The notes beneath the pieces are model-generated. The model had not been told where the DNA came from and did not search any database. It worked only from the letters and a program-made list of their open reading frames with translations. From positions 1-53,471 of the IMG/VR virus record IMGVR_UViG_3300009169_000028: DNA of 53,471 bases. One strand, 5' to 3'. A program made the translations under genes and the position numbers. The stretch comes from a virus. Shown here one piece after another: positions 8,574 through 47,360 of the stretch. Position 1 is the stretch's first letter, and every line of letters begins with the position of its first letter.

Positions 8574-9662
8574 ATGTATACCAGGCGGGAAACGGCAACG
8601 GTAGAGGATGTCGAGTTCCGGGTGGCGCCATCATCCGAATGGGAGGTCGTGGTGTCGGCCGGGGCGGAGGCGCCAGCCAGGGGACAGGGGGCAGGGGACA
8701 GGAGTCAGGGGACAGAGAATACGGCGCTCGTGCCGGCCGGCCTGGACATCGAGGGTATCCTGAATCTGTTCGATGAGTGGATGAAGCTGGACGTCGGCGA
8801 TGGCCGGGCGAGTCCGCTGACGCTGATCGCATATCGGAGCGATGTGCGGCAGCATCTCGTGTGGCTGGTGGAGCAGAGGAAGACGCCGGCGCAGGTGACG
8901 ACGTTCGACCTGAAGGCCTATAGAGCGCACCTGGTGGAGAGCTACCAGGTGTCAACCGTCGGGCGAAAGCTGGCCAGCATCCGGCGGTTTTATCAGATGG
9001 CGCAGGCGCACGGGATGCTGCCGGTGAATGCGAGCTACGGGCTGAAGAGTCCGGTCGATAAGACGGAGCAGAGCGAACGGATCAAGTATCTGACGCTGAT
9101 GTCGCTGAAGGCGTTGTTTGCGGCGACAGAGACGGCGAGCACGCCGGCGGCGCAGATCCGGGATAAGGCGATCATCGCGCTGATGGCCATCCACGGCCTC
9201 AGAGTGTGCGAGGTAAGCCGGCTGGACCTGACGGACGTGGATCTGGAGAAAGGCGAGGCCGGGGAGCTGGCCGCGCTGGGCAAGGGGGATAAGCGGCGGA
9301 GTGTGCTGTTGACGGATGACACCCGGCCGGCGTTGGAGAAGTGGTTGGCGGTGCGGCGGCTGATGCACGCCGACTCGCCGGCGCTCTTCCTGGCGCTGAG
9401 CGGGCCAGCGGAGCGGATTAGCACGCGCGGGCTGCGGGCGATGGTGGATCACTACCTGGTGAAGATCGGGGCCAAGAAGACGGGTGTTTCATGCCACGCG
9501 CTGCGGCACACGTATGCGACCCAGAGCCTGGCAGCCGGGGCGAGTCTGCTGGCGATCTCCGGGAGTATGGGACACAGCTCGGTGACGACGACGCAGGTCT
9601 ACGCTCAGATCGTGGACAAAGCCCGAAACAATCCGGCGAAGTTCTTAGTAGGGCTGTTATAG
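8574..9662 (+). CDS. XerC/D-type tyrosine recombinase
   Basis: A 362-residue recombinase with all catalytic residues: Arg 210 (HGLRVCEVSRL), Lys 240 (GKGDKR), His 308 and Arg 311 (HALRHTYATQ), His 334 (GHSS) and Tyr 343 (TQVYAQIVD). Residues 58-155 are the core-binding domain. The first 55 residues are a non-conserved leader containing a translated heptamer repeat (8678-8715). It differs from the integrase at the window ends. It sits in the early operon, not at attP. It may resolve genome multimers or a replicative form, or act on another site. Its last codons overlap a motif copy. Confidence 0.85.
   Translation: MYTRRETATVEDVEFRVAPSSEWEVVVSAGAEAPARGQGAGDRSQGTENTALVPAGLDIEGILNLFDEWMKLDVGDGRASPLTLIAYRSDVRQHLVWLVEQRKTPAQVTTFDLKAYRAHLVESYQVSTVGRKLASIRRFYQMAQAHGMLPVNASYGLKSPVDKTEQSERIKYLTLMSLKALFAATETASTPAAQIRDKAIIALMAIHGLRVCEVSRLDLTDVDLEKGEAGELAALGKGDKRRSVLLTDDTRPALEKWLAVRRLMHADSPALFLALSGPAERISTRGLRAMVDHYLVKIGAKKTGVSCHALRHTYATQSLAAGASLLAISGSMGHSSVTTTQVYAQIVDKARNNPAKFLVGLL
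8678..8715 (+). repeat. Heptamer repeat family A (GGGGACA/GGAGTCA)
   Basis: A run of heptamer units inside the recombinase leader, translated as RGQGAGDRSQG. One of seven copies, all in this orientation. Confidence 0.75.
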
Positions 9663-16401: not shown

Positions 16402-16788
16402 ATGATAGCGATCTCCTATCTGGTGATTTTGATTCTGGCGGGCAGTCTGTTGTACATCGTGATCGCCGGGGTGGGGCCCGGTTTGCGAGAGGGAAGGAAG
16501 AAGGATGAAACGTCTAAACCCGGGCATGATCAGCCACAGCCTGTCGCTGTGCGGGATGAATGCGTATCGTGCGGTCATCCTGGAGATGGCCGAGCAGATC
16601 AACGCGCTTCAGGAAGCAGTCGAGGATCTGCAAGGGCTGGTGAGCGCCGAGATCATGGGCGGCCTGGCCAAGCCCAGCGAATTGCGGGAGGTCGTGGCGG
16701 AGCTGGCCAGGGGACAGGAGTCAGGAGACAGGGGTCAGGGGAACGGGCGCCAGCCATCAAGCATCCCGGACGGAACGGTAACGGGTAG
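16402..16788 (+). CDS. Possible single-TM peptide overlapping next gene
   Basis: An open frame starting MIAISYLVILILAGSLLYIV, a good TM segment, behind GGGAGG. Its later part overlaps the gene at 16505 in another frame for most of its length and looks non-coding. Only the first ~35 residues are believable. Confidence 0.3.
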   Translation: MIAISYLVILILAGSLLYIVIAGVGPGLREGRKKDETSKPGHDQPQPVAVRDECVSCGHPGDGRADQRASGSSRGSARAGERRDHGRPGQAQRIAGGRGGAGQGTGVRRQGSGERAPAIKHPGRNGNG

Positions 16789-22526: not shown

Positions 22527-23932
22527 AAAGCCAGCGTCTCCTCGCGCGTGCGTTGCACGATGTTTCCGTAGTACGTCAGCTTGAACGTTCCGTCCTTCTG
22601 AGCCGCGCGCTTTGCCATCTCCATCCCTGTACCGCGCGCGGTCTTGTTCTCCGGGTGGGGTGTCAGCATCGTGCTCTGGACCCGCCGCGGGAGACCGGTG
22701 AGATCGACGTGTTTTTCTCGGCTGAAGATATCGTTCCAGAACCACTCAGACAGCATACTCAGCAGTGTGAGCTTGTGCAGCCTTTCGTATCGTTCGTGTG
22801 GCACCGTAAAGGCGAACGTCAGGTTCGCCGGGATGTCGCCGATCTCGTCGTCTTTGCTGCCGTGTCCGCTGCGCATGTTTGCTGTTGTGAACGCGAGGAT
22901 TGCTGCGAGGCAGCCGTCCAACAGCAGACCTACGTATTTTTCAGACATGCTGCCTGGCAAGCGGTGGATGAAAAGGTCCTTGTAGTAGTCAGCGACGTCG
23001 CGTGGGATGACTCTCGCCTCGATCCGTGAATCCGGTTTCACCTCGCCCGTGAAGAGTTTGAATCTGGCCTCGCCCAGCGTGATCTTTGCCCGGCTTACCT
23101 GTGGCGGGATCGGGTTACGATTGGCGACGATCCAGTTGATCGCTGCGCTCTTACTGTTGCTGGGACGATCGGCAAAGACAGACTGCCACGGCTCGCCCCA
23201 CAATGGCGCCGGGTCCTCATTGGGCGTCGCGTAGTACATCAGCGTCAAGGCGGGACTTGCGCCGAGCACCTGCATCAGCCGAGCGTAGTCTTTCTCAGTG
23301 AACTGCGCGACCTTGGGCTCGTCCCAGTCGAAGATCCGTTCGATTCCTTTGAACATCCGGCCATACCCGCCCGTGTACCGAGGCGGATTCACCAGCAGCA
23401 GCGCCTTCGGATCGCCTCGATACTCGTCCAGGGTCAGCCACATATCGCGCGCTTCGTACCGCAGCCCGCGCAGCGCCTGCGCCATCTCGACGATCGCTTC
23501 CATCAGTTGCCCGATGTAGTTTTCCGCCTCCTGCATCAGCTCGCGCTGGACGTGCTGGAGGAAGATCGTCTGATTTTTGCGGTCGTATTGCAGCACCCGG
23601 ATCGCATACATCACCGCAGCCGCTTTGGCGATCGGGGCGCCGTCCACGTATTTCCGCACGAGCTCGCCGATCTCACCGGCCTCGGGCTTCAGATCAAGGC
23701 GCCAATCATTGCTCATGATGGCCATGCCGAGAGCCGTCGAGTATAGCGAAATGTCACCGCAGACGATCCGCTCCGTCGGCGCGCCCGCCTCACGCGCGAC
23801 GGCTGCCAGTGAGAATGAGCCGCAGCACGGCACCACCACCACCGAGGCCTTGCTGGCCATCACTACGCTGGCGGTGTAACCGCGTGTCGGTCCGCGCGGG
23901 ATGCCCCTAAACAGGATGTCTGGATTCGACAT
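22493..23932 (-). CDS. SAM-dependent methyltransferase-like protein (anti-restriction type)
   Basis: A 479-residue protein with a SAM-binding strand-loop (VVVPCCGSFSLAAVA, then IVCGDISLYS) and an NPPRYTGGYGRMF box that resembles motif IV (NPPY) of adenine methyltransferases. This is the pattern of phage putative anti-restriction adenine methyltransferases. It heads the minus-strand packaging operon and overlaps the ParB-like gene by 34 bp. The start ATG at 23932 follows TGGAGGATCG. It may modify phage DNA before packaging. Confidence 0.65.
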   Translation of the reverse strand: MSNPDILFRGIPRGPTRGYTASVVMASKASVVVVPCCGSFSLAAVAREAGAPTERIVCGDISLYSTALGMAIMSNDWRLDLKPEAGEIGELVRKYVDGAPIAKAAAVMYAIRVLQYDRKNQTIFLQHVQRELMQEAENYIGQLMEAIVEMAQALRGLRYEARDMWLTLDEYRGDPKALLLVNPPRYTGGYGRMFKGIERIFDWDEPKVAQFTEKDYARLMQVLGASPALTLMYYATPNEDPAPLWGEPWQSVFADRPSNSKSAAINWIVANRNPIPPQVSRAKITLGEARFKLFTGEVKPDSRIEARVIPRDVADYYKDLFIHRLPGSMSEKYVGLLLDGCLAAILAFTTANMRSGHGSKDDEIGDIPANLTFAFTVPHERYERLHKLTLLSMLSEWFWNDIFSREKHVDLTGLPRRVQSTMLTPHPENKTARGTGMEMAKRAAQKDGTFKLTYYGNIVQRTREETLALWLQKFATKTR

Positions 23933-27982: not shown

Positions 27983-28138
27983 GTGGAACGGGTGTGTCAG
28001 AAATGCGGGCGGGTGTATCGGGGGCTGGTGTGCCAGGCGTGCCATCCGAGGCGGAAGAAGGCGGAGGCTGAGGTCAAGTCGAAGGCTGAGGTCAAGGCTG
28101 AGACTGAGGCTGAGGTCAAGGCGAGTGAGGATGTGTGA
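27983..28138 (+). CDS. 51-residue zinc ribbon with AEVK tail
   Basis: From GTG 27983 the frame reads VERVCQKCGRVYRGLVCQAC (one zinc ribbon), then a Lys/Glu/Ala-rich tail of repeated (K)AEVK units. Its stop overlaps the ATG of the capsid gene (TGATG), a sign of real coupling. Perhaps a capsid-assembly or decoration peptide; unproven. Confidence 0.55.
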   Translation: MERVCQKCGRVYRGLVCQACHPRRKKAEAEVKSKAEVKAETEAEVKASEDV

Positions 28139-30846
28139 TGAAGAAGCAAGTTGCAGTGAGCCGGCCGCTGGCGGAGGTGACGAAGGGATCGTTCGAGTAT
28201 GCGGCGGACGAGGTGGGGCGGGCGTTCCGGAATGAGTTTGGGGCGCCAGAGTCGCCGGGGATGGCGGAGTACTACCCAGTTGAAACGTTCTCGGATGCGC
28301 TGATCGTGTCCGAGTGGTCGAGCGACGAGGGACCGGACGAGTTCTATCGGGTGCCGTACACGAGGGACGCCGACGGGAAGATCGTCTTCGCAGTGCGGGA
28401 TGCGTGGGAGCCGGTGGAGCTGACGTATCAGGCGCGGACGGAAGACGAGGGTCAGGGGACAGGGGTCAGGGGTCAGGAGTCGGTGGAACGGGCGCCAGGC
28501 CAGCGCCGGCGGCTGGAGGAAAACGTGGGGCCGCGGGCGGAGCTGGCGGAAGGGGCTGCGGGCAATGGGGCGACGCGGCGGATTCGGATCGCCGGGCTGA
28601 TGCAGGCGGGAGTGATCAACGGGAACGGGCGGCGCTATCCTGCGCACGTGCTCGAGGCGGCGGTCGCGGAGTGGCGCGATCATCTGCGCGAGAGTGCCGG
28701 GCAGGGCCGTTTGAAGATACTGACGGGCGAGGTGGAACATCCGGGCGACAAGGGGAAGCGGGGCGCGCAGTTCCTGGAGACGGTGGTGCGGTGGACGAAT
28801 GTGACGTTCGACGGCGCTAACGTGGACGTGGCAGGCGAGTTGATCTTGACCACACGGGGACGGGATGTGGCGACGCTGATGGAGTCCGGCGTGCGGCCTG
28901 GCGGGTCCGTCAGGGGTTTCTACGAGGCGAAGGTGGTGCGGGAAGGCGACCGGTCGGTTGAGGATGTGGCGTGGTGCCAGATCACCGGGGCCGATCTGGT
29001 CGGGGATCCGTCGTTCGAGAATGCGGCGGATTTGTTGGAGAGCAGAGCCAGGGGACAGGGGTCAGGGGACAGGAGTCAGGAGTCAGGGGTCAGGAGTCAG
29101 GGGTCCGACCTGGACGAGAGCAATAGGGGAGATGACGAGATGGATGCTGAGACGCTGGCTGAGATGATCAAGGCGCATCCCGAGCTGTTCAAGGGGATCG
29201 TGGCCGAGAGCGTGAAGGAGATGACCGAGGCGCAGCGGGTGGATCTGGAGAAGCAGATCCGCACGGCGCTGGGGGTCGGGGAGTCGGCGGACCTGGTGCA
29301 GGCGCTGACCGAGGCGGCCGAGGCGAAGAAGCAGATGGCCGAGCAGGCCCGGGTGAAGGCGATCACTGAGGCGGTGACCGCGGCGACGAAGGACCTGCCC
29401 TACGGCAAGGCGCTGAACGAGATGTTCGCCGTCGAGCTGCGCGAGAGCGTGCAGGATGCGGGCGAGGTGGCGGCCAGGGCGGCCGGGCTGCGCAAGCGGT
29501 ACGATGCCATGAGGAGCGCCGCGATTCTGGGTGGCATGGGGCATGGCGTCCAGGTGCTGGGACCGGTGATCGAGTCTGAGGCCGGCGTGCCGGAGTTCGC
29601 CCGGGCGAGCCACGAGTTCACCGAGAGCATGATCGCCCGCGGCATCGCGACCCGGCGCAATCTGCGCGAGTCGACGAAGGTCAACGACGTGATGGCGCGG
29701 CGGGTGCTGGAGCGGTTCGACCAGGTCAACCGACTGCCGCTGATGCGCGAGGCGCAGCTCCAGGAGACCGAGCTGAGCACCGATCTGAACCTGCCGTACT
29801 CCGTGAGCCGGGCGATCCTGGCCGAGGTGTGGCCGTCCCTGATCGCCACCAGCATCTTCGATGTGGACGTGACCGATCAGTCCCCGACTCGCGTTTATTA
29901 CGAGGACTACGCGGACGTGAGCGGCAAGCACGTGGCGGTCACAGACGAGGCCGTGACGCTGGAGACGGGCGAGTGGGTGAGCTTCGCTCACAAGATGGTC
30001 CAGCCGGGCACGGTGGTGGTGCAGCTCGCGAACGACACGGGGACCTACGTCGAGGGCACGGACTACGTGATCGACTATCTCGACGGGGCGATCTGGGGGC
30101 TGGGCGCGAATATCGCGGACCATACGGCGCTCCATGTCGACTACCACTATGACTCGGTGCGCGAGGGCGAGAATACCGAGATTCAGCGTGGCAAGGCGAC
30201 GCTGGCCTACGGTACGCTCGACTGCAAGGCCAATCGGCTGGCGACCCAGATCACCAACGAGGCGATCGTGTTCTCCCGCTCGCAGATGGGGTGGGATGCG
30301 ACGGCCCGGACGCTGGCGATGCTGGTGGCTGAGCTGCGCCGGGAGATCGACGCGGCGCTGATGTTCAACGCGCTGGGGCAGGCGTTGAAGGTGGCCACCA
30401 ACTCCGGCGGCACCTGGACGGCGGCCACCGATCCGCTGATCGACCTGGTCAGCTACATCGGCATCGCCAAGGTCAAAGTGGAGAAGCGGTACTTCGAGCC
30501 GACCTTCGTGCTTGTCTCCTCGACGACCTCGGACACCCTGGGCAACTGGGACGGCTTCACCGCGGCGGGCAGCCGCGCCGATGTGGCGTTGAACGCCAAC
30601 GGCTACGTCGGGCGGGTCAAGGGTCTGCCGGTGTTCAAGAGCACCGAGTTCTCCGACGCGTACGCGTTGGTCGGCAACCGGCAGGTGGTGCACTACCGCA
30701 TCTACCAGCCGATGGCGCTGAAGGGGCCGTTCCCGTCCTACGGGACGAACCGGCTGCTGGTGGCGGCGGATCAGTGGTATGCCGAGCAGTACGACGGGGC
30801 GATCAGCCCGGTGGCGGGAAAGGCGAGTTACGCGAAGATTGCGTAG
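28138..30846 (+). CDS. Prohead protease - scaffold - major capsid fusion
   Basis: A 902-residue chain. Residues about 148-300 are a gp21-like (S80) prohead protease: GVINGNGRRYP (158-168), GEVEHPG with His 201, and GGS with Ser 257. Residues 335-465 are a charged helical scaffold (MTEAQRVDLEKQIRTAL region). About 480-902 is an HK97-fold-like capsid domain (RLPLMREAQLQETELST, STTSDTLGNWDGF, GLPVFKSTEFSDAYALVG). Two translated heptamer repeats lie at about 105-115 and 304-323. An in-frame ATG at 29140 (residue 335) behind AGGGGAG could start scaffold-capsid alone. These parts are usually separate genes. Confidence 0.8.
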   Translation: MKKQVAVSRPLAEVTKGSFEYAADEVGRAFRNEFGAPESPGMAEYYPVETFSDALIVSEWSSDEGPDEFYRVPYTRDADGKIVFAVRDAWEPVELTYQARTEDEGQGTGVRGQESVERAPGQRRRLEENVGPRAELAEGAAGNGATRRIRIAGLMQAGVINGNGRRYPAHVLEAAVAEWRDHLRESAGQGRLKILTGEVEHPGDKGKRGAQFLETVVRWTNVTFDGANVDVAGELILTTRGRDVATLMESGVRPGGSVRGFYEAKVVREGDRSVEDVAWCQITGADLVGDPSFENAADLLESRARGQGSGDRSQESGVRSQGSDLDESNRGDDEMDAETLAEMIKAHPELFKGIVAESVKEMTEAQRVDLEKQIRTALGVGESADLVQALTEAAEAKKQMAEQARVKAITEAVTAATKDLPYGKALNEMFAVELRESVQDAGEVAARAAGLRKRYDAMRSAAILGGMGHGVQVLGPVIESEAGVPEFARASHEFTESMIARGIATRRNLRESTKVNDVMARRVLERFDQVNRLPLMREAQLQETELSTDLNLPYSVSRAILAEVWPSLIATSIFDVDVTDQSPTRVYYEDYADVSGKHVAVTDEAVTLETGEWVSFAHKMVQPGTVVVQLANDTGTYVEGTDYVIDYLDGAIWGLGANIADHTALHVDYHYDSVREGENTEIQRGKATLAYGTLDCKANRLATQITNEAIVFSRSQMGWDATARTLAMLVAELRREIDAALMFNALGQALKVATNSGGTWTAATDPLIDLVSYIGIAKVKVEKRYFEPTFVLVSSTTSDTLGNWDGFTAAGSRADVALNANGYVGRVKGLPVFKSTEFSDAYALVGNRQVVHYRIYQPMALKGPFPSYGTNRLLVAADQWYAEQYDGAISPVAGKASYAKIA
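28449..28481 (+). repeat. Heptamer repeat family A
   Basis: GGGGACA, GGGGTCA and GGAGTC units inside the capsid fusion gene, before the protease domain. Confidence 0.75.
29048..29103 (+). repeat. Heptamer repeat family A at protease-scaffold junction
   Basis: Eight heptamer units translated without a stop, exactly between the end of the protease domain and the start of the scaffold; the longest copy in the window. Confidence 0.8.
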
Positions 30847-30847
30847 A

Positions 30848-30917
30848 GTTGTCAGTTGTCAGTTTTCAGTTGTCAGTCCGGGGGGCGTGACTGAAAACTG
30901 AAAACTGACAACTGAAG
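30848..30917. repeat. Inverted TCAGTTG/TCAGTTT heptamer array
   Basis: Units of TTGTCAG and TTTTCAG on the left face complementary units on the right around CCGGGGGGCG, forming a long hairpin after the capsid gene. It may act as a transcript processing or attenuation signal. Confidence 0.7.
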
Positions 30918-30960: not shown

Positions 30961-32553
30961 ATGAATAGGCCAAGCAAGGGGCAGATGGGCTGGGGCATTG
31001 TGGTGGTGGTGATGGTGCTGGCCAGTCTGTTCTTCGGGGTGAAGTTGCCGATTCCGCCTGAGCCGGAGCCGGAGCCGGTGGTGGAGAGCGGGACGTCGCG
31101 TGCGCTGGCGGACAGGTACTTCGAGTCGCTGATCGTTGACAAAGAGCTGATCGTCAACGGGACGACGAATCTGACGGGCTCGGCGAGTTACGGGGCGAAT
31201 GCGGTGTTCGAGGGCGCGACGGCGGACGCTTACGAGACAACGCTGGCGATCACCGACCCGACGGCGGATCGGACGATCACGTTCCCGAACAGCTCGGGGA
31301 CGGTGACGTTGAATCCGCTGGGCGAGAGTACGGAGTTTGAGGGCGCCACGGCTAATGAGTTTGAGACCACGCTGGCGGTGACGGATCCGACGGCGGACCG
31401 GACGCTGACGCTGCCGGACGAGACGGCGGCGGTGATGGTGTCGAGCCTGACAACGAACGCGACGGATGCGGCTAACGCGGTGACCGGGGCCTCCAACGGG
31501 CTGGTGTTCGAGGGGTCGGGGGTAGACAACTTCGAAACTACGGTGTCGGCGACCAATGCCACGGCAGATCGCAGCGTAGTGCTGCCGGACGCCGGCGGGA
31601 CGCTGATGCTGTCGAGCCTGGCGACGAATGGGGCCGACGCGGCGAATGCGGTGACGGGGGCCTCCAATGGGCTGGTCTTCGAGGGCGCCACGGCGAATGA
31701 TTTCGAGGCGACGATCACGCCGACCGATCCGACGGCAGATCGCACGGTTACACTGCCGGATGCGTCCGGTACGGTGGCGCTGACGTCGCAGGCTGTGGAC
31801 ATGACGCTGACGGCCGATGCGACCGGCGGCAATGCGGGCGCCAAGACGGAGTACATCGGGTTGCCGCGCATCAAGCTGATCGGCGGCGGGCAGGGGACGA
31901 ATCCCGGCTCGCAGACGATCGCGCTGGTGGACGATACGCCGGATGGGGAGTTCGCGCCGGTGGACGCCAGCGTGACCGAGAGCCTGGAGGCGGTGTACTA
32001 CAAGCACGGCACCAAATCCTACGGGGCCGCCTGGGACGTGGGCGCGGTGGCGACGGATGGGTTTATCGACGCGAACCTGGGCGCGGGTGCGGCCTGGGAT
32101 GACATGGAATCGGTGGGTCTGCTCGTCTACTCGACGGCGACGTGGGCGGCCGGCGATCTGACGCTGGTGCTGACGGATGACGGCGGCGCGCGCACATACA
32201 ACATCCCGGCGTTGACGGCGGCGAATGTCTGGACGTGGCTAGAGGTAGACATCTCCGCCGGCGATCTCAGCGCGGTGTCGGATGTGGCGATCCTGATGTC
32301 AGCCCAGGGCGAGACGAACCTGGGCGCGTTCACGATGTACCTGGACATCGGCTATGTCTGGGATGCGGCTGATGAAGAGGCGCTCGGCGTGGCGATTCAG
32401 CAGGACGGCGTGCTCGGGGTGATCAATACGGAATCCGGGGCGCAGCTCGCCGAGTTGACCGACTACATCGTGCATTACGAATCCGGCGTCGATTTCCTCG
32501 TGTACATCACCGATCAATCGACGGCGGATATCGCAGTGCTGGCGGCGTACTAG
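30961..32553 (+). CDS. Repeat-containing virion protein with N-terminal TM
   Basis: A 530-residue protein. Residues 10-27 are a TM segment (WGIVVVVMVLASLFFGVKL), then an E-P repeat, then four repeats of about 50 residues with FEGATAN-x-FETTLAVTDPTADRTLTLPD as the core (written in part), and a beta-rich C-terminal domain (about 300-530). The repeats are typical of phage fibre or head-decoration proteins. The TM anchor is odd for a virion protein and could place it in the host membrane. Confidence 0.6.
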   Translation: MNRPSKGQMGWGIVVVVMVLASLFFGVKLPIPPEPEPEPVVESGTSRALADRYFESLIVDKELIVNGTTNLTGSASYGANAVFEGATADAYETTLAITDPTADRTITFPNSSGTVTLNPLGESTEFEGATANEFETTLAVTDPTADRTLTLPDETAAVMVSSLTTNATDAANAVTGASNGLVFEGSGVDNFETTVSATNATADRSVVLPDAGGTLMLSSLATNGADAANAVTGASNGLVFEGATANDFEATITPTDPTADRTVTLPDASGTVALTSQAVDMTLTADATGGNAGAKTEYIGLPRIKLIGGGQGTNPGSQTIALVDDTPDGEFAPVDASVTESLEAVYYKHGTKSYGAAWDVGAVATDGFIDANLGAGAAWDDMESVGLLVYSTATWAAGDLTLVLTDDGGARTYNIPALTAANVWTWLEVDISAGDLSAVSDVAILMSAQGETNLGAFTMYLDIGYVWDAADEEALGVAIQQDGVLGVINTESGAQLAELTDYIVHYESGVDFLVYITDQSTADIAVLAAY

Positions 32554-32768: not shown

Positions 32769-32969
32769 ATGCGGGTGGTGTTGACGCAGAAGCGGGTGGT
32801 GGGGCATGTGATGCGGTATCCTGGTGAAGTGGTCGAGATCCAGGAGACAGAGGACAGGGGTCAGGAGTCAGGAGTCAGGGACCAGGAATCAGGTGATACG
32901 GGGGTCTCCATGCCTATCGTGCCGGAAGCTGCGCCGCTCAAGTCTTCACGTCGGGGACGTAAGCTATGA
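32769..32969 (+). CDS. Small protein with inserted repeat
   Basis: A 66-residue protein (MRVVLTQKRVVGHVMRYPGE) whose middle is a translated family-A repeat and whose tail is basic (SSRRGRKL). ATGA-linked to the next gene. Similar small genes between capsid and connector genes are common in siphophages. Confidence 0.55.
   Translation: MRVVLTQKRVVGHVMRYPGEVVEIQETEDRGQESGVRDQESGDTGVSMPIVPEAAPLKSSRRGRKL
32841..32893 (+). repeat. Heptamer repeat family A
   Basis: Seven units in the small gene at 32769, supplying about a quarter of its codons. Confidence 0.75.
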
Positions 32970-41720: not shown

Positions 41721-41961
41721 TTCATGGCTGGCGTACGAGGTGGATGTGGCGGCGCTGCTGTTGGGGCGGCGGGTCGAGGCGCTGATAGCCGATGGGAAGA
41801 CGAGCGTGGCTGAGGCGCTGAGCAGACTGGAGCAGGAGTCAGGGGTCAGGGGACAGGGGTCAGGGGTCAGGGATCAGGGGGCGTGGGCGAATCAGAAGTG
41901 GCGAGATCCACGGCCGTATGTGTCGAAGAGGATGGAGATACCCGAAAGTGGGATCTGGTGA
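41623..41961 (+). CDS. Tail assembly chaperone, downstream frame (gpT-like)
   Basis: A 112-residue open frame that overlaps the first chaperone by 98 bp and has no good start of its own (TTG only). It contains RPSAILCLSDSWLAYEVDVA, the RPS-x5-D-x2-A pattern common in gpT-like domains, then a translated family-A repeat and a short tail. Most likely expressed as a gpG-T fusion. Confidence 0.65.
   Translation: MPPFVRNREELWLLHQVAQTYSSRPSAILCLSDSWLAYEVDVAALLLGRRVEALIADGKTSVAEALSRLEQESGVRGQGSGVRDQGAWANQKWRDPRPYVSKRMEIPESGIW
41625..41634 (+). promoter_or_regulatory. Putative +1 programmed frameshift site
   Basis: In the gpG-like frame the codons read GCC CCC TTT C. A +1 slip of the prolyl tRNA on CCC-T would enter the frame that encodes the gpT-like domain. 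Phages use both -1 and +1 sites between these two genes. Confidence 0.55.
41832..41880 (+). repeat. Heptamer repeat family A
   Basis: Seven units in the gpT-like frame, translated QESGVRGQGSGVRDQG. Confidence 0.75.
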
Positions 41962-47329: not shown

Positions 47330-47360
47330 CAGGAGACAGGGGACAGGGGTCAGGAGACAG
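47330..47360 (+). repeat. Heptamer repeat family A (intergenic)
   Basis: GGAGACA, GGGGACA, GGGGTCA, GGAGACA units, the only family-A copy outside a gene. Confidence 0.7.

What the first reader, a model, noticed from the sequence alone, without database searches (positions are those of the whole stretch)
28138..30846. Prohead protease, scaffold and capsid joined in one frame through a heptamer repeat
The protease domain ends near residue 300, then comes a stop-free heptamer array (29048-29103), then ATG 29140 behind AGGGGAG begins the scaffold and capsid. The most economical reading is that a repeat insertion removed the protease stop and fused two genes. Internal initiation could still give a separate scaffold-capsid product.
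Basis: partly seen in the sequence, partly recalled or inferred. Interest (0 to 1): 0.65.

Follow-up and report, generated by a model that had tools for sequence, protein, structure and literature searches.

The report
Nested phage protease-scaffold-capsid gene
One phage gene encodes the head protease, the internal scaffold and the shell protein in a row, and about a hundred related viruses keep a hidden second start signal at the junction, so the shell protein is probably also made alone in bulk; the short DNA repeat in this virus only lengthens the spacer and did not cause the fusion.

Summary
In detail: one stop-free 902-codon frame (28138-30846) encodes an S77 (T4 gp21-type) prohead protease, a helical scaffold and a gp23-type/HK97-fold capsid protein, with a heptamer array at 29049-29105 between protease and scaffold. 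The proposed origin does not hold. In all 99 distinct proteins whose junction could be read (window plus 98 relatives; 59 clusters at 70% identity), the three parts share one frame, without a stop. The fusion is therefore old, and the array only expands a spacer that is shorter in every relative. Two features flank that hypervariable spacer. On its left is an invariant glutamate (E301, 99/99) in a context like the T4 gp21 cleavage motif. On its right is an in-frame start with a Shine-Dalgarno (SD) sequence (ATG+SD in 95/99; 42/43 in a held-out set). Synonymous codon choice there favours the SD (z = -7.1; control windows +0.6). Best reading: a nested gene, as in lambda C/Nu3, extended to the capsid protein: a minority fusion product brings protease into the prohead, internal initiation supplies most scaffold-capsid subunits, and the protease cuts at E301 and E543. 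Products and cuts were not observed. Protease-scaffold-capsid genes are known (phage MD8); this is a new variant.

The parts
28138..30846 (+). Protease-scaffold-capsid gene, 902 aa, one open frame
   Evidence: same architecture in 98 distinct relatives
28127..28130 (+). GAGG before the first start ATG 28138
   Evidence: duplex energy -8.0
28449..28481 (+). Shorter heptamer array in the linker between the N-terminal part and the protease
28507..29004 (+). S77 (gp21-type) prohead protease domain, residues about 124-289; H201 codon 28738-28740, S257 codon 28906-28908
29038..29040 (+). Codon of invariant E301, predicted protease cleavage site (DLLE/S)
   Evidence: E in 99 of 99; T4 motif L/I-X-E; cleavage itself inferred
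29041..29124 (+). Hypervariable spacer, expanded here by the array
   Evidence: pLDDT below 50
29049..29105 (+). Heptamer array CAGGRGN, 8.1 copies
29125..29131 (+). Internal Shine-Dalgarno AGGGGAG, 8 nt before ATG
29140..29142 (+). Internal in-frame start ATG (M335) of the predicted scaffold-capsid product
   Evidence: ATG with SD in 95 of 99
29146..29766 (+). Helical scaffold domain, residues 337-543, ending at invariant E543 (codon 29764-29766)
29767..30843 (+). Gp23-type / HK97-fold major capsid protein, predicted mature part

Best explanation
This is an ancestral nested head gene. From ATG 28138 a protease-scaffold-capsid polyprotein is made. From the internal SD and ATG (29125-29142) the same frame also gives a scaffold-capsid protein without protease. 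The short product supplies most of the shell; the long one co-assembles as a minority and so places protease inside the prohead. After assembly the S77 protease cuts after E301, freeing itself, and after E543, removing the scaffold. The spacer between E301 and the internal start is under little sequence constraint, which is why a dispersed heptamer repeat could expand there (34 codons here, median 10). Shown: the shared frame, the conserved start signals, the invariant glutamates, the predicted domain folds. Inferred: that both products are made, their ratio, and the two cuts.
For: Every protein with a readable junction, 99 distinct in 59 clusters at 70% identity, has all three parts in one frame. 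The second set came from a scan with the capsid domain alone, which did not require a protease. An ATG with at least a 4-nt SD core lies within 40 codons after E301 in 53/56 first-set and 42/43 held-out sequences; 3 of the other 4 have GTG with GGAGG. The background is 6% of equal windows in the same ORFs. With the protein sequence fixed, synonymous codons at the junction favour the SD: mean duplex energy -9.43 against -6.96 in resampled sequences, z = -7.05, 0 of 1000, 58 clusters; control windows z = +0.55. Glu before Glu/Asp is GAG 21 of 21 at the junction and 149 of 285 elsewhere. The internal SD is as strong as that of the gene's own start (-9.17 vs -8.97, n = 36). E301 is E in 99/99 and E543 in 97/97; T4 gp21 cuts after L/I-X-E. 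T4 proheads hold 72 protease and 930 capsid copies (PMC9026906), so a strict 1:1 fusion would be far from that ratio.
Against: No protein or transcript data exist for any member. For the window alone the synonymous test is not significant (p 0.32); the signal is a family one. L051 has only a weak SD, and three sequences use GTG. The anti-SD used is the common bacterial one while the hosts are unknown. Part of the SD match comes from the acidic residues themselves, which could be kept for another reason. E301 and E543 might be invariant for structural reasons; P3 at E301 is L or I in only 60 of 99.
Confidence: 0.82

Rival explanations
1. Recent fusion by repeat: insertion of the heptamer array removed a protease stop codon and joined two genes.
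For: The array lies exactly at the domain junction and its unit is stop-free in all + frames.
Against: 98 distinct relatives are fused without a stop, with spacers made of other sequence; the closest, L005 (86%), has no array at the junction.
Confidence: 0.01
2. Single polyprotein: only the full-length product is made, protease and capsid are 1:1, and processing alone separates the parts; the SD-like sequence is a by-product of an acidic stretch.
For: MD8 gp5 is described as a single propeptide. Acidic residues give SD-like codons by chance: the synonymous null mean is already -6.96.
Against: Codon choice at the junction is biased to the SD beyond the protein sequence (z = -7.05; GAG 21 of 21); the ATG is kept while residues around it vary; the SD is as strong as at the true gene start.
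Confidence: 0.12
3. Two products arise by another route, for example an internal promoter or mRNA processing, with the internal SD used on a shorter message.
For: Not excluded by the sequence; the internal SD and ATG would be needed in either case.
Against: No evidence was sought for an internal promoter, and it is not required.
Confidence: 0.1

Closest known systems
Pseudomonas phage MD8 / F10 gp5 and relatives such as mEp213 and mEp460
   Same: Protease, scaffold and capsid protein in one gene (PMC8508860). In the seven members checked here an ATG with a GAGG- or GGAG-like sequence upstream also lies just after the protease domain.
   Different: ClpP-type protease and a Mu/HK97-type capsid. 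The word 'internal' does not occur in that paper's text, and a later paper calls the product a single propeptide.
Virus Rctr41k gene 30 (KX853513)
   Same: Same family, 42-45% identical over the full length, annotated 'putative phage capsid protein and protease'.
   Different: Very short spacer, no array. The source paper's text names only a prohead protease for this genome (PMC5099504).
Lambda C/Nu3 nested protease-scaffold gene
   Same: Protease and scaffold in one gene (PMC8508860); in-frame internal start for the scaffold (own knowledge).
   Different: In lambda the capsid protein is a separate gene; here the nested product includes it.
T4 gp21 / gp22 / gp23
   Same: Protease family and fold, capsid family, cleavage after glutamate in T4.
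   Different: Separate genes in T4.
Fused protease-capsid genes of Arthrobacter phages (clusters AM, AU, AN) and Rhodobacter phage RcBaka
   Same: Protease and capsid in one gene (PMC5513430).
   Different: Not related by any search made here; nested starts are not discussed in the passages read.

Membership tests
Peptidase S77 (T4 gp21 prohead protease) | Pfam PF03420 above gathering score | tested here: met
   49.6 vs 27 bits; all 39 aligned members match
Peptidase S77 (T4 gp21 prohead protease) | gp21 fold | tested here: met
   Foldseek 5jbl, E 1.7e-9, TM 0.70 by target length
Peptidase S77 (T4 gp21 prohead protease) | conserved His and Ser of the active site | tested here: met
   H201 97/97, S257 99/99; both align with alanines of the 5jbl chain, which I take to be inactivating replacements (inference)
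Peptidase S77 (T4 gp21 prohead protease) | cleaves after glutamate | not testable with these tools
   only the invariant E301 and E543 are seen
Gp23 major capsid protein / HK97 fold | Pfam PF07068 above gathering score | tested here: met
   30.0 vs 24.4 bits; but only 11 of 39 members match at E 0.01
Gp23 major capsid protein / HK97 fold | HK97 fold | tested here: met
   many HK97-fold capsids at E below 1e-6; TM is low by query length because the model holds several domains
Nested in-frame protease/scaffold gene (lambda C/Nu3 kind) | in-frame internal start with ribosome-binding site | tested here: met
   comparative evidence
Nested in-frame protease/scaffold gene (lambda C/Nu3 kind) | two protein products observed | not testable with these tools
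   needs proteomics or expression
MD8-type protease-scaffold-capsid gene | all three functions in one gene | tested here: met
   scaffold assigned from position and helical prediction only
MD8-type protease-scaffold-capsid gene | ClpP-type protease domain | tested here: not met
   S77 instead

The most novel reading that the evidence does not exclude
Unrelated phage lineages that fused protease, scaffold and capsid (S77/Gp23 here, ClpP/HK97-type in the MD8-F10-mEp group) each keep an internal start at the junction, so dosage control by nested initiation would be a general requirement of protease-capsid fusions rather than a lambda peculiarity.
Probability: 0.45. Interest if true: 0.6.

Novelty: new variant of a known kind. 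Interest (0 to 1): 0.47.

Why it matters
Annotation treats such genes as one 'protease' or one 'capsid' protein. If the internal start is used, the real shell precursor is the shorter nested product, and the enzyme-to-shell ratio is set by two ribosome-binding sites on one message. The family gives a clear, testable prediction: a product beginning at M335 and cuts at E301 and E543. It also shows how a repeat can expand without apparent harm in an inter-domain spacer.

Tried and rejected
Repeat-made fusion: rejected by 98 fused relatives. Split relatives: none found; L131 looked split but its upstream DNA encodes what reads like part of a cellular PEP carboxykinase (my own recognition), so it is taken as a chimeric contig. 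L105, L142, L157, L158 and L163 are cut by contig ends before the junction. L063 and L057 have frame breaks elsewhere in the gene, not at the junction. A per-sequence synonymous test had little power (median p 0.41, combined Fisher p 0.35), because the null is discrete and bimodal; the summed test, which also avoids choosing the ATG, is the one relied on. In one search the apparent lack of a start in L045 and L058-L060 was an artefact of the search window; one search finds ATG with SD there. Paper searches for internal starts in fused capsid genes found none. Lactobacillus phage SA-C12 (a third fusion type) has an in-frame TTG behind AAGGAGG near the protease end, a single unreplicated case.

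Full report
WHAT IS THERE. The window is a viral contig of 53,471 bases. One frame runs from ATG 28138 to the stop at 30846. It holds a Peptidase_S77 domain (T4 gp21 type, residues 149-295) and a Gp23-type capsid domain (564-848), both above Pfam's cut-offs; PHROG agrees for the protease. A 39-sequence AlphaFold model (mean pLDDT 74.6) shows a protease at about 124-289, residues 291-338 below pLDDT 50, a helical stretch at 337-543 and a capsid fold from about 553. Foldseek matches T4 gp21 (5jbl, TM 0.70 by target length) and many HK97-fold capsids. The array is real: 29049-29105, period 7, 8.1 copies.

THE FUSION IS OLD. I scanned viral contigs with the whole protein, with an alignment, and with the capsid domain alone. 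The last scan cannot favour fused genes. In all, 99 distinct proteins including the window have a readable junction (56 plus 43), in 59 clusters at 70% identity. In every one the protease, scaffold and capsid share one stop-free frame. L005, the closest (86%), has the spacer GGVTPPGHGQGQ; Rctr41k (45%) has almost none. Most columns under the heptamer array are occupied by only a few sequences. So no stop was removed by the repeat; the repeat lengthened a spacer. The distance from E301 to the internal ATG has a median of 10 codons and is 34 in the window, the longest seen.

TWO CONSERVED ENDS AROUND A VARIABLE SPACER. Spacer residues 303-330 have a mean top-residue frequency of 0.02, against 0.67 in the protease and 0.63 in the capsid. 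Left end: E301 is glutamate in 99/99, followed by S in 82. T4 gp21 cleaves after L/I-X-E and is itself processed at its C-terminus (PMC9026906). A second invariant glutamate, E543 (97/97, followed by A in 90), ends the helical part just before the capsid fold. Right end: an in-frame ATG with an SD core. First set 53/56, held-out set 42/43; 3 of the other 4 have GTG with GGAGG, and L051 has only a weak SD. Equal windows elsewhere in the same ORFs have one in 6%.

IS THE SD MORE THAN A SIDE EFFECT OF ACIDIC RESIDUES? I resampled synonymous codons with each gene's own usage, keeping the protein, and took the best SD over all in-frame ATGs in the region, so that no start had to be chosen. Over 58 clusters the mean is -9.43 against -6.96 kcal/mol (z = -7.05, 0 of 1000); random control windows give z = +0.55. 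An earlier version with chosen starts gave z = -5.1 over 33 clusters. Glutamate before Glu/Asp is GAG 21 of 21 at the junction and 149 of 285 elsewhere. The internal SD is as strong as the gene's own first SD (-9.17 vs -8.97, n = 36). For the window alone the test is not significant (p 0.32); the evidence is that of the family.

HOW IT PROBABLY WORKS. Two products from one frame: a protease-scaffold-capsid protein, and the nested scaffold-capsid protein from ATG 29140. T4 proheads hold 72 protease and 930 capsid copies (PMC9026906); a second start lets one gene give unequal amounts. The long form would carry the protease into the prohead as part of the assembling shell. Cutting at E301 would release it and cutting at E543 would remove the scaffold. 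The start signals and glutamates are shown by comparison; the products, the ratio and the cuts are inferred. H201 and S257, invariant in the family, align with alanines in the T4 gp21 crystal chain, which I take to be inactivating replacements of the active site.

COMPARISON. One-gene protease-scaffold-capsid proteins are described for phage MD8 (PMC8508860), and protease-capsid fusions for Arthrobacter phages (PMC5513430). MD8-type genes have a ClpP-type protease, so this family is not a member of that group, though it works alike. Seven MD8-type genes checked here carry an ATG with a GAGG- or GGAG-like sequence upstream, just after the protease domain; this was not tested statistically. Nested protease/scaffold starts are classical in lambda (C/Nu3) and herpesviruses (own knowledge). 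I found no paper in the held library that reports a nested start for a protease-capsid fusion, which is weak evidence of absence.

VERDICT. Observation confirmed; repeat-fusion interpretation refuted; internal initiation strongly supported by comparison but not observed. New variant of a known kind, moderate interest.

Noticed in passing
window 8678-8712, 16708-16742, 28453-28480, 29049-29104, 32841-32896, 41833-41881, 47330-47357: Seven arrays of the same heptamer (CAGGRGN), all on the + strand. The unit reads open in every + frame; the forms CAGGGGT and CAGGAGT carry a stop on the reverse strand. Records behind L005 and L007 have arrays of their own, each record on one strand only.
   Followed up: partly
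window 30847-30874 (+) and 22559-22579 (-): A second heptamer type, AGTTGTC/AGTTTTC, directly after the capsid gene stop and once on the other strand.
   Followed up: no
window 29911-30243 (residues 592-702): A segment of the capsid protein resembles phage tail-tube / Ig-like domain models (NF052337 below its cut-off, PHROG 807), perhaps a beta domain shared by capsid and tail-tube proteins.
   Followed up: no
L006 2673-3100, L007 3596-4000, L008 3590-4000: Some relatives carry an extra N-terminal domain of about 130 aa before the protease part; the window and L005 lack it. The front end of the gene is modular.
   Followed up: no
L092 (DYIV01000104.1): A contig filed in a MAG named Slackia heliotrinireducens from a mine sample encodes a protein identical to that of viral contig L027; the host label is doubtful.
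   Followed up: no
L131 1-380: Chimeric-looking contig: sequence resembling PEP carboxykinase runs into the scaffold-capsid part (identification from my own recognition).
   Followed up: partly
L171 4522-6711 (Lactobacillus phage SA-C12): A third type of protease-capsid fusion has an in-frame TTG behind AAGGAGG near the end of the protease part.
   Followed up: no
window 31339-31760: The gene after the capsid (530 aa, tail-fibre-like) contains a 171-bp coding repeat, 2.5 copies.
   Followed up: no
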